From NCBI RefSeq assembly GCF_000154725.1, contig NZ_DS544873.1:2989397-3053396 (forward strand): 64,000 nt of DNA. The letters are read 5' to 3'. Shown here piece after piece: positions 28,846 through 38,826 of this stretch. A program made the position numbers and the translations under genes. Numbering within the stretch: position 1 is the stretch's first letter; each line of letters begins with the position of its first letter. Below the pieces are notes generated by a model. The model did not search any database and had not been told where the DNA came from. It saw only the letters and a program-made list of their open reading frames with translations. Source of the stretch: Kordia algicida OT-1. GTDB lineage: Bacteria; Bacteroidota; Bacteroidia; Flavobacteriales; Flavobacteriaceae.

Positions 28846-28973
28846 TTATATAATTTTACACTTTTTCTTCTCAAAAAAACTGTTACAAAAAAGTTAAGTA
28901 AGGATTTCCCGTAAAGACTTCTTCTAATGTTTTTTTACTTTCTAATCAAGTTTAACCAAAAAATTATAAAATC

Positions 28974-29138
28974 ATGTTAGAAAGTATTCTCAAATTAGGA
29001 ACTACATTAAGTAAAAAAGAACAACGTCAAATTACAGGTGGTATGTGGCCGAGAACGGAAGAAGCATGCCATCAATGTGGCGGAGAATGGTACGCTCCAT
29101 TATGTGCTTTACCTCACGATTCGCCATGCGCTTCTTAG
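28974..29138 (+). CDS. Double-glycine-leader, four-cysteine secreted peptide 1
   Basis: This 54-residue ORF encodes a leader MLESILKLGTTLSKKEQRQITGG ending in Gly-Gly, the processing site of C39-type peptidase exporters in Bacteroidota, and a 31-residue core. The core holds four cysteines in the order CxxCGGEW, then APxCxLP, then a final PC. The downstream paralogue has exactly the same spacing. The conservation of paired Cys with W, G and P suggests a disulfide-bonded mature peptide. No lanthionine or radical-SAM enzymes are next to it, so enzymatic crosslinking other than disulfides is not suggested. Activity (bacteriocin, signal, other) is unknown. Confidence 0.82.
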   Translation: MLESILKLGTTLSKKEQRQITGGMWPRTEEACHQCGGEWYAPLCALPHDSPCAS

Positions 29139-29190
29139 GTGTTAAGAGTAAAATCATTCATTAAAAAATTAATCATAAAAAACACAAATC

Positions 29191-29352
29191 ATGTTAGAAA
29201 ATATTTCAAATTTAGGAACAGCATTAAGTAAAAAGGAACAACGTCAAATTACAGGTGGCGTTTTTATAAATAATGAAGCAGACTGTTTACGCTGTGGTGG
29301 AGAATGGGATGCGCCATTTTGTACATTACCTTCCAATACGCCTTGCCAATAG
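29191..29352 (+). CDS. Double-glycine-leader, four-cysteine secreted peptide 2
   Basis: This 53-residue ORF encodes MLENISNLGTALSKKEQRQITGG as leader (nearly identical to peptide 1) and a 30-residue core. The leader is highly conserved at DNA level while the first ten core residues differ. The core keeps all four cysteines and the GGEW, AP, LP and PC positions. It lies 52 bases after peptide 1 and probably arose from it by tandem duplication. A strong terminator follows 11 bases downstream, so the two peptides form one short, probably highly expressed transcript, separate from the 29554 gene. Confidence 0.82.
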   Translation: MLENISNLGTALSKKEQRQITGGVFINNEADCLRCGGEWDAPFCTLPSNTPCQ

Positions 29353-29363
29353 GTAGAAAGTAG

Positions 29364-29411
29364 ACTGTCTAAAAAATGATTGTAATTATTTAATTTTTTA
29401 GACAGTTTTTG
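29364..29411 (+). terminator. Terminator of the peptide transcript
   Basis: A perfect 14-bp stem (ACTGTCTAAAAAAT at 29364-29377 and its complement at 29393-29406) encloses a 15-base loop and leads into a T-run. Confidence 0.88.
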
Positions 29412-29553: not shown

Positions 29554-31116
29554 ATGGAACATATTATCCTTTCCTTACTAACCAATAATAGCTATTTGGA
29601 TGTTAATCGTGAGCTCTTAAACTTGCAATTATTATCGCATCCAGAGTATCCAAGTCTGAAATCTATTACAGATACGCTCGATTATTTTGAAATTGATAAT
29701 TTGGCAGCTACCGTACCAAAAGAAGCATTGTCACAAATGCCAACTTCATTTTTGGCACTTGTAAATAATGGAAAAGGTGAAGAAGTTGTTTTGGTAGAAA
29801 AAAAACGTGGCGCTATTCACATTGTAAATGTAGATGGAAAAAAAGAAAAACTTTCGGAAGCTGTGTTTTCTGAACGTTGGACAGGAACAATTGTCGCTGT
29901 TGAAGAACTTGAAAAAACAGTCAATACAAAATCATTACAAACGGCGCTTCCCTATTTTGTGGTTGCTGCAGTAGCTTCTACAACAGTATTGCTCAATTTT
30001 AGTTTGCCATATTTGTTGTACACTGCGCTTACTTTAGTTGGTTTGTACATAAGTATTTTAATTATCCGAGAAGATTTGGGCATCAAAAGCAAAGCTGTAG
30101 CGAAAGTGTGTGGTGCAATTTCAAAAAATAGTACTTGTGGCGAAGTTATTAATACGAAAGGAAATAAAATCTTCGGAATTATCTCTTTGAGCGATGCTTC
30201 TTTTGTGTTTTTCGCAGGATTATTTTTGATTTTAGCTTCTATCGGATTTCATCAAAGTACGCTTTTAACAATGTCACTAGCAGGAATTCCAGTGATTGTT
30301 TATGCACTATTCCGACAAGGTTTTGTATTAAAAAAATGGTGTGCGCTATGTTTATTAATTGCAGGAATTTTAGTGTTACAAACAGGATTATTACTCGCTA
30401 CATTCGATTTTGTTTGGCAAATTAACGCATCATATATTGCGAGACTCGTCAGCATTTTTGTGTTGTTATATATTGCTTGGATATATTGCAAATCGTATTG
30501 GGAAAGCCATGAAAAATTGGCTGTAACGGAAACTAATTTTCTAAAGTTTAAGCGAAATCCTGAATTGTTTAAAACAATGCTACAAGAGAAGCACATATTA
30601 AATGCCAACGTAATTCCTCAGCAATTACGCATAGTTTTTGGAAATCCTAACGGAGCCATAAAATTACAAGGTGTTACCAATCCGTTATGTGGTTTTTGTA
30701 CCGCAGCTTTTGAATCGTATGATAAATTACTTAGTTCGTATGGCAATGATATTCATTTAGAATTTATTTTTAATGTGCCAAAAGATGCCGAAAATAAAAG
30801 TACTAAAATTGCTTCTCGCTTGATCGATTTGTATTTGCAAGATCCTAAAAAAGCCTATACAGCGCTAAAAGAATGGTATGCTAATAGAGATATTGATACA
30901 TGGCATAAAAACTTCGGATATTCAGAAAATACGAAGGTATTAGAAGTCTTGGAAGCACATACAGAATGGTGTAATATTAACGATGTTCATTATACGCCAG
31001 CGAGCATTTTGAACAATCACTTTTTTCCTGACTCGTATGAAGTGAAAGATTTACCGTTGTTTATTCAAGATATAATTTTGGAGTCGCAAGGAGCTTCTGG
31101 AGAAACGCAAGTGTAA
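29554..31116 (+). CDS. C39-like / VKOR / thioredoxin-like fusion, putative disulfide-forming enzyme
   Basis: This 520-residue membrane protein has three parts. Residues 1-118 look like a C39 peptidase fold (HPEYPSLKSITDTLDYFEI, then SERWTGTIVAVEE) but contain no cysteine at all, so it cannot be an active C39 protease. Residues about 132-312 are a six-helix VKOR domain with loop cysteines C186 and C195 and a redox pair C263-A-L-C266. Residues about 355-510 are a DsbA/thioredoxin-like domain with C379-G-F-C382 and a TP cis-proline near 481-482. The expected activity is quinone-coupled disulfide formation outside the cytoplasm. Its position beside two four-cysteine peptides suggests they are its substrates, perhaps held by the inactive C39-like part. 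No exporter is adjacent. Confidence 0.85.
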   Translation: MEHIILSLLTNNSYLDVNRELLNLQLLSHPEYPSLKSITDTLDYFEIDNLAATVPKEALSQMPTSFLALVNNGKGEEVVLVEKKRGAIHIVNVDGKKEKLSEAVFSERWTGTIVAVEELEKTVNTKSLQTALPYFVVAAVASTTVLLNFSLPYLLYTALTLVGLYISILIIREDLGIKSKAVAKVCGAISKNSTCGEVINTKGNKIFGIISLSDASFVFFAGLFLILASIGFHQSTLLTMSLAGIPVIVYALFRQGFVLKKWCALCLLIAGILVLQTGLLLATFDFVWQINASYIARLVSIFVLLYIAWIYCKSYWESHEKLAVTETNFLKFKRNPELFKTMLQEKHILNANVIPQQLRIVFGNPNGAIKLQGVTNPLCGFCTAAFESYDKLLSSYGNDIHLEFIFNVPKDAENKSTKIASRLIDLYLQDPKKAYTALKEWYANRDIDTWHKNFGYSENTKVLEVLEAHTEWCNINDVHYTPASILNNHFFPDSYEVKDLPLFIQDIILESQGASGETQV

Positions 31117-32532: not shown

Positions 32533-32559
32533 TTCGACTTTACTCAATGTTGGTTATTT

Positions 32560-32622
32560 GGTGTTCGGTGTTCGGTGTTTGGTGTTTGGTGTTTGGTGTT
32601 TGGTGTTTGGTGTTTGGTGTTC
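32560..32622. repeat. Heptanucleotide tandem repeat, 9 units
   Basis: Nine head-to-tail 7-base units occur: GGTGTTC twice, GGTGTTT six times and GGTGTTC once. They fill most of the gap between the ABC permease stop (32661) and the nuclease start (32532). Such arrays can gain or lose units by replication slippage; here this would change the spacing upstream of the nuclease start, not a reading frame. Confidence 0.95.
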
Positions 32623-32660
32623 AAAAAATACTTTCTAATTGATACTTTCAAATTTATATA

Positions 32661-38481: not shown

Positions 38482-38826
38482 ATGGGAAAATTTACAGTAT
38501 CAATTCCAGCAGGACCAATTTGGAATGACGAAGACGGAAAAGAAAAAGGACCAATTGTAGCAGCGGCACATTTGGGAGAGTTTGACGGAAATTGGCGTAC
38601 CGTTGTGCCAAATGAAATGAGCACAGTAGATGTTATTTTGAATTCTGAGCCAACAGGTTCTTCAGAATATACATTAGATGTATTGGCAGGACCAATTTGG
38701 AATCAGGAAGACGCAGAAAAGAAATGTCCGGTTGTCTGTGCTTCTTACGGAGGCAAATGGAACGGACAATGGAAAACAGTCGTTTCTGGGAAGATGAGCG
38801 TTTGCGGATGCACGTTTAAATTCTAA
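38482..38826 (+). CDS. MVL-like (mannan-binding) lectin with two repeats
   Basis: This 114-residue protein consists of two tandem repeats of about 54 residues. Repeat 1 has IPAGPIWNDEDGKEKGPIVA, AAHLGEF and WRTVVP; repeat 2 has VLAGPIWNQEDAEKKCP, ASYGGKW and QWKTVVSGKMS. The pattern AGPxWxxxxAxxxxP..A..xGxFxGxWxTVV is that of the cyanobacterial lectin MVL, which binds high-mannose glycans. Repeat 2 has four cysteines (CPVVC and CGC) not found in repeat 1, a possible disulfide or metal feature. No signal peptide is visible. It is a single gene unit ending at a terminator. A sugar-binding role is well supported; its biological role is not known. Confidence 0.88.
   Translation: MGKFTVSIPAGPIWNDEDGKEKGPIVAAAHLGEFDGNWRTVVPNEMSTVDVILNSEPTGSSEYTLDVLAGPIWNQEDAEKKCPVVCASYGGKWNGQWKTVVSGKMSVCGCTFKF

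What the first reader, a model, noticed from the sequence alone, without database searches (positions are those of the whole stretch)
28974..29352. Twin four-cysteine peptides with double-glycine leaders, apparently unannotated small genes
Two ORFs of 54 and 53 residues have nearly the same leader (MLExIxxLGTxLSKKEQRQITGG-type) and cores with identical cysteine spacing and identical CGGEW, AP, LP and PC positions, while the first ten core residues differ. This is the pattern of a secreted peptide family with duplicated genes. They share a transcript closed by a strong terminator. The leader type is known for C39-exported Bacteroidota peptides (established); the four-cysteine core class and its function are not known to me (inference).
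Basis: partly seen in the sequence, partly recalled or inferred. Interest (0 to 1): 0.8.

Follow-up and report, generated by a model that had tools for sequence, protein, structure and literature searches.

The report
Paired secreted disulfide peptides in Kordia
Two tiny neighbouring genes in a marine bacterium of the genus Kordia encode small four-cysteine peptides that are very probably exported and cross-linked by the membrane enzyme encoded next door, and they belong to a large set of similar peptides that share one DNA control site, which makes a hidden arsenal of bacterial peptides testable.

Summary
Confirmed and extended. Two ORFs (28974-29138, 54 aa; 29191-29352, 53 aa) encode precursors with near-identical 23-aa GG leaders and 31/30-aa cores of pattern CX2CGGEW(Y/D)AP(L/F)CX7C. 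The core occurs in 9 of 11 Kordia genomes (one copy broken) in the slot between rodA and a VKOR fusion, is under purifying selection, and recurs beside VKOR fusions in 3 genomes of 2 other genera. The neighbouring protein joins a peptidase-dead C39-like domain, VKOR and a DsbA-like thioredoxin; its six redox cysteines are kept in 41 of 41 sequences. Of 30 further fusion loci read, 23 have a C39-ABC exporter within 6.5 kb. Best reading: secreted, disulfide-bonded GG peptides, oxidised by this fusion and exported in trans, because Kordia has no exporter here. Export, oxidation and activity (antibacterial or signal) are inferred, not shown. Closest known: bacteroidetocins (class IIf). New variant of a known kind.

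The parts
28894..28913 (+). Palindromic operator TTAAGTAAGGATTTCCCGTA
   Evidence: 72 of 82 genus-wide sites precede small leader-bearing peptide ORFs
28936..28941 (+). -7 promoter element TACTTT, 22 bp after the operator
   Evidence: TA at this offset in 72 of 72 peptide-linked sites; TA plus TT in 1 of the 10 other sites; Bacteroidota -7 consensus recalled
28974..29138 (+). GG-leader four-Cys precursor A1 (54 aa; leader 23, core 31)
29191..29352 (+). GG-leader four-Cys precursor A2 (53 aa; leader 23, core 30)
29363..29411 (+). 15-bp A/T-rich hairpin plus T run, probable terminator
29554..31116 (+). Fusion protein: dead C39-like domain (about 1-120), VKOR region with six hydrophobic segments (131-312), DsbA-like thioredoxin (about 360-504)
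   Evidence: orthologue in 11 of 11 Kordia genomes

Best explanation
The two genes make secreted peptides. A shared activator binds the operator and turns on the two-gene transcript (inferred from sequence). The 23-residue leader marks the precursors for a C39-ABC exporter, which cuts after GG and exports the 30-31-residue cores; Kordia has no exporter here, so one encoded elsewhere, most likely the C39-ABC + HlyD pair at G000:C1:3.42 Mb, acts in trans (inferred). In the periplasm the neighbouring fusion enzyme oxidises the four cysteines to two disulfides through its thioredoxin and VKOR parts (inferred from intact catalytic cysteines and gene linkage). Its peptidase-dead C39-like domain probably holds the peptide or docks on the exporter (inferred). 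The mature peptides most likely act on competing bacteria, as bacteroidetocins do (weakest step).
For: Leader, core and selection. Linkage to the VKOR fusion: core in the rodA-VKOR slot in 9 of 11 Kordia (G005 copy broken) and near VKOR fusions in G126, G336, G345. Fusion homologues belong to export clusters: C39-ABC within 6.5 kb in 23 of 30 loci read (of 38 further places), 22 on the same strand; each of these exporters is best matched by the same one of four own C39 exporters. Even, non-zero Cys number in 56 of 67 GG cores there. Redox Cys C186, C195, C263, C266, C379, C382 in 41 of 41; C39-like domain by hhalign 97.8%, starting after the catalytic Cys segment. Thioredoxin part resembles DsbA/ScsC. 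The slot holds a cluster with exporter in L229, L231, L249 and an exporter-less version in L222, L224, L270. Regulon. GG-motif precursors without a PCAT exporter in their cluster have been noted in Bacteroidales (PMC10352776, passages).
Against: No transcript, peptide or activity data. Export in trans is unproven. 7 of 30 fusion loci show no exporter in the stretch read; no random-locus control was run for this, nor for the Cys parity. G003 keeps the VKOR fusion with no GG peptide found in the slot, and G007 has a GG peptide of unrelated core there, without the operator. Six hydrophobic segments (threshold 1.2 in 41 of 41; at 1.6 in 30-40 of 41 per segment) put the C39-like domain on the same side as the catalytic loops, so it cannot simply read the leader in the cytoplasm while VKOR works outside; the K/R-rich loops on the catalytic side do not favour the periplasmic assignment. 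The structure model has low confidence (mean pLDDT 60.6).
Confidence: 0.68

Rival explanations
1. Cell-cell signal: the mature peptides are pheromones sensed by membrane regulators such as the TPR + AraC-type (HTH_18) proteins encoded beside C39 exporters.
For: Two TPR + HTH_18 proteins lie in the own C39 loci L184 and L185; relatives occur near fusion loci L226 and L229; no immunity-like gene was seen in the slot.
Against: Dozens of unrelated cores under one operator are an odd design for a signal; four Cys and a linked oxidase suggest stability outside the cell; bacteroidetocin regions also have no obvious immunity gene (PMC6671954, passages).
Confidence: 0.17
2. Class I lanthipeptide-type product: cysteines become thioethers by LanB/LanC encoded elsewhere.
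For: LanB, LanC and a C39-ABC lie in one locus in G000; 3 of 10 regulon peptides tested weakly match the lanthipeptide leader model, below its cut-off.
Against: The window peptides do not match that leader model; each core has only three Ser/Thr for four Cys; no LanB/LanC-like ORF among 49 non-overlapping window ORFs of 100 aa or more; the linked enzyme is an oxidase.
Confidence: 0.07
3. Metal-binding cytosolic mini-protein (CX2C + CX7C site), the leader being coincidental.
For: Two spaced cysteine pairs, CX2C included.
Against: GG leader shared with dozens of other precursors; conserved linkage to a VKOR fusion; 50 of 67 regulon cores counted have an even, non-zero Cys number in very different spacings (16 odd, 1 zero).
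Confidence: 0.04

Closest known systems
Bacteroidetocins, class IIf bacteriocins (Coyne et al. 2019, PMC6671954; passages seen)
   Same: Bacteroidota, GG leader, four cysteines, thiol oxidoreductase gene in the same region whose deletion weakens activity, C39-ABC exporter type, no obvious immunity gene
   Different: There 15-aa leader and 42-aa core, with a 5-TM protein and exporter in the same four-gene region; here 23-aa leader, 30-31-aa core, no exporter in cis, and the linked oxidase is a C39-like/VKOR/thioredoxin fusion
VKOR-thioredoxin fusions (DsbB/DsbA-like oxidases; Pfam VKOR and Thioredoxin_4)
   Same: VKOR and CXXC cysteines present
   Different: Extra N-terminal peptidase-dead C39-like domain and linkage to GG peptides
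C39-like domain of HlyB-type exporters (recalled; NCBIfam TIGR01846 only weakly hit, E 0.0068, far below cut-off)
   Same: C39-related domain without the catalytic Cys
   Different: Attached to an oxidase, not to an ABC transporter
Class I lanthipeptide leader NF038153 lant_leader_L1a
   Same: Some other peptides of the same regulon weakly resemble it
   Different: Window leaders do not match

Membership tests
Bacteroidetocin (class IIf) | GG leader and four-Cys core | tested here: met
Bacteroidetocin (class IIf) | Thiol oxidoreductase gene in the region | tested here: inconclusive
   a redox enzyme is adjacent, but the family of the published one is not named in the passages seen
Bacteroidetocin (class IIf) | C39-ABC exporter gene in the same region | tested here: not met
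   no relative of the own C39 exporters among 49 window ORFs; the own C39 ORFs of exporter length lie elsewhere
Bacteroidetocin (class IIf) | Five-TM protein gene in the region | not tested
   published sequence not at hand
Bacteroidetocin (class IIf) | Sequence relationship of the core | not tested
   published sequences not at hand; Pfam and NCBIfam give only unrelated weak matches
Bacteroidetocin (class IIf) | Kills Bacteroidota | not testable with these tools
   needs bench assay
Class I lanthipeptide | Leader model NF038153 | tested here: not met
   no hit for either window peptide at E up to 1
Class I lanthipeptide | LanB/LanC in the cluster | tested here: not met
   against the genome's own LanB/LanC
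VKOR family oxidase | Four VKOR Cys plus thioredoxin CXXC | tested here: met
   41 of 41 sequences; Pfam VKOR 6e-11
Active C39 peptidase | Catalytic Cys and His (roles recalled) | tested here: not met
   the window fusion has no Cys in residues 1-130, the aligned part starts after the catalytic Cys segment, and the His of the HFVV motif aligns with Glu

The most novel reading that the evidence does not exclude
Kordia runs a dispersed peptide arsenal: many unrelated Cys-rich GG peptides scattered over the chromosome, switched on together through one palindromic operator at a fixed distance from the -7 box, exported by shared machinery, and oxidised by an enzyme whose dead peptidase domain was turned into a substrate-holding module for disulfide formation.
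Probability: 0.45. Interest if true: 0.78.

Novelty: new variant of a known kind. Interest (0 to 1): 0.62.

Why it matters
It links a class of small peptide genes, easily missed by annotation, to their likely oxidase, exporter type and control site. The operator gives a simple way to list such peptides in a whole Kordia genome. The fusion enzyme suggests how Bacteroidota add disulfides to exported peptides, and a dead C39 domain joined to an oxidase is a testable idea about substrate handling. Mass, knock-out and reporter tests could be done in cultured Kordia.

Tried and rejected
Rejected: chance ORFs (conserved locus; dN/dS 0.26); cytoplasmic leader-docking by the C39-like domain together with a periplasmic oxidase (six hydrophobic segments); calling it a bacteroidetocin or lanthipeptide (membership table). 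Led nowhere: structure of the 54-aa peptide (mean pLDDT 62.7, pTM 0.38; helix 14-20 in the leader, helix 29-34 and two short strands in the core); sigma-70 scan (8 sites, 10.0 expected). Paper searches for VKOR with GG peptides or bacteriocins, and for Kordia with double-glycine peptides or bacteriocins showed nothing on these peptides in what was listed; searches list 15 of 184 and 8 of 24 papers, and only open-access papers are held. The operator-binding protein was not found; the TPR + HTH_18 regulators are candidates only. Strict operator matches outside Kordia are about as rare as the control: 6 of 197 non-Kordia genomes with one site each, against 4 of 199 genomes with a control match; none of the six precedes a GG peptide, though 2 of 6 have the -7 box. 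In 12 of 30 non-Kordia loci a looser form TANGG-N5-CCTTA was seen 85-94 nt before the ATG, with no control run; among 72 GG-type ORFs of the fusion loci L221-L250, L270 and L271 none had TANGG-N5-CCNTA in 160 nt upstream.

Rows dropped or special: 66 of 82 sites passed a GG/GA rule (one, L012, only through an inner ATG; its leader ends GKG); 5 more have a similar leader ending in G plus another residue (L078, L089, L156, L163, L181); 1 (in L146) was cut by the fragment end and entered only. Together 72; the other 10 have no such ORF. GG-peptide ORFs at fusion loci were picked by a loose pattern, so a few may be spurious. Of the 38 further fusion places, 30 were read. In one search the 11 genomes with E between 0.0015 and 0.05 were not counted as members, and only 20 candidates per genome were scored, so its count is a lower bound; L257 (E 1.8e-4) is left open.

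Full report
Observation. The two ORFs exist as described. A1 is MLESILKLGTTLSKKEQRQITGG / MWPRTEEACHQCGGEWYAPLCALPHDSPCAS, A2 is MLENISNLGTALSKKEQRQITGG / VFINNEADCLRCGGEWDAPFCTLPSNTPCQ. Leaders share 19 of 23 residues; from the first Cys the cores share 13 of 22. A hairpin of 15 mostly A-U pairs (29363-29407) followed by TTTTG lies after A2 (-20 kcal/mol, z -4.6, 0 of 200 shuffles as good).

Genus. A search with A1 in 99 genomes, own included, found matches at E up to 0.1 in 14: all 11 Kordia and 3 others, many of them leader-only. A profile of the core alone finds it in 9 of 11 Kordia genomes: two copies in G000, one in each of eight others. In all nine it sits between rodA and the VKOR fusion. 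The G005 copy has a 13-bp deletion that breaks the frame, and a core Cys codon reads Trp. G001 has GKG instead of GG. All four Cys are invariant in the nine intact sequences. dN/dS (NG86) has a median of 0.26 over 36 pairs; leader alone 0.32 over 36, core alone 0.28 over the 26 pairs where dS could be computed. In G007 the slot holds a GG peptide with a different four-Cys core and no operator, and in G003 a 158-aa ORF and no GG peptide found. Gene names of the neighbourhood rest on Pfam: MreB, MreC, a penicillin-binding transpeptidase, RodA, a non-specific endonuclease, an OppC-like permease and a tail-specific protease.

Wider relatives. The core profile in 397 genomes of the family finds 18 with a match at E up to 0.05: three Kordia, strong matches in G126 (3.9e-17), G336 (5.1e-15) and G345 (5.4e-12), a doubtful one in G368 (1.8e-4), and 11 weak ones. 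G126 and G336 are one genus, G345 another. The peptide lies 80 bp from the fusion gene in G126, 263 bp in G345, and 1.2 kb in G336 with three other GG-type ORFs between.

The fusion enzyme. The 520-aa neighbour matches C39 (residues 28-118, 8.7e-05), VKOR (155-276, 6e-11) and Thioredoxin_4 (360-504, just under its cut-off). In 41 sequences the VKOR cysteines C186, C195, C263, C266 and the thioredoxin pair C379, C382 are invariant. Its first domain aligns with true C39 domains at 97.8% probability but starts after the catalytic Cys segment, and the catalytic His (role recalled) aligns with Glu: a peptidase-dead C39-like domain. The predicted structure is of low confidence overall, best in the thioredoxin part, which resembles DsbA/ScsC. 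Six hydrophobic segments are present in 41 of 41 at a lenient threshold and in 30-40 of 41 per segment at a stricter one, so both ends should lie on one side of the membrane.

Export clusters. Fusion homologues occur in 29 of 199 genomes of the family, two of them Kordia. Beyond the two Kordia rodA-slot copies that call lists 38 places; I read 30 of them (29 from other genera, 1 a second fusion of K. periserrulae). Of these, 23 have a C39-ABC exporter within 6.5 kb, 22 on the same strand, usually with an HlyD-like gene and GG peptides; no random-locus control was run. Of 67 GG cores picked there, 56 have an even, non-zero number of Cys. In L229, L231 and L249 a cluster with exporter sits next to flanking genes of the window (permease and protease; in L231 also rodA), and in L222, L224 and L270 the same slot has fusion and peptides but no exporter. 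I infer that the Kordia locus is an exporter-less form of that cluster. G000 has four other C39 ORFs of exporter length (738-748 aa) and one of 204 aa. The one at 3.42 Mb is a C39-ABC by Pfam and stands with HlyD, LanB, LanC and a TPR + HTH_18 regulator; among the four it is the best match of the cluster exporters (51-62% identity, the top value a fragment).

Operator. Alignment of upstream regions showed a conserved palindrome. In G000, TTAAGTAMGGNNTNNCCGTA with up to 2 mismatches has 21 sites against 6 for the reversed control; 8 of 8 with 0-1 mismatch and 6 of 13 with 2 mismatches precede GG peptides. In 11 Kordia genomes, TTAAGTAMGGTNTTNCCGTA with up to 1 mismatch has 82 sites against 1 for the control. 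All 82 were read: 72 precede a small ORF of the leader type; of the 66 passing the GG/GA rule, 62 have the ATG 51-63 nt downstream. In the 72, TA is invariant 22 bp after the operator, followed by T at the two further places of the -7 box in 71 and 72; of the 10 other sites 1 has TA and TT there. The box was not used to choose the sites, so this is independent support. The A1/A2 operator is at 28894-28913 and the box at 28936-28941; no second site before A2 was listed. By position the binding protein should be an activator near -42 (inference). It is unknown.

Mechanism and standing. Shown by sequence: leader, core, selection, locus, enzyme anatomy, cluster linkage, operator. Inferred: export in trans, oxidation by the fusion, activator control, activity. 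Among known systems bacteroidetocins work most alike (PMC6671954, passages), but the exporter in the same region is missing here and the oxidase is a VKOR fusion, so I do not file it there. GG-motif precursors without an exporter in their cluster were noted in Bacteroidales (PMC10352776, passages). A Kordia algicida LanB/LanC/LanA cluster was noted in 2010 (PMC3091789, passages); Kordia genomes are known to be rich in biosynthetic clusters (PMC10734526, passages; PMC7477175, passages). I saw nothing on these peptides, the fusion or the operator in my ten searches, which cover open-access papers only and were seen mostly as listings.

Noticed in passing
window 38482-38826: 114-aa mannan-binding-protein-like ORF (Pfam MVL in its C-terminal part) that looks like two repeats; only the second has cysteines.
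   Followed up: partly
L292-L297, L248: Six Kordia genomes have a second, diverged VKOR fusion (27-30% identity) at another place, in some with a four-Cys small ORF beside it.
   Followed up: partly
L185:5443-8860: In the window's genome a C39 ORF of exporter length, a thioredoxin-like protein and a 210-aa ORF without Pfam hit stand together, a set reminiscent of bacteroidetocin regions; the GG-peptide pattern listed no peptide there.
   Followed up: partly
L115, L116, L117, L120, L124, L134, L138: Tenacibaculum GG-peptide genes carry a related palindrome TANGG-N5-CCTTA 86-93 nt before the ATG.
   Followed up: partly
L078, L089, L163, L181: Operator-linked peptides with core CCEWC(P/S)DGTC and leaders ending in G plus Q, M or R instead of GG, in four Kordia genomes.
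   Followed up: no
L291, rodA-VKOR slot of G007: Same slot and leader type but an unrelated four-Cys core and no operator: the core may be exchanged as a cassette.
   Followed up: partly
window about 32540-32640: Short tandem-like repeat visible in the translation (LVFGVWC repeated) between the nuclease and permease genes.
   Followed up: no
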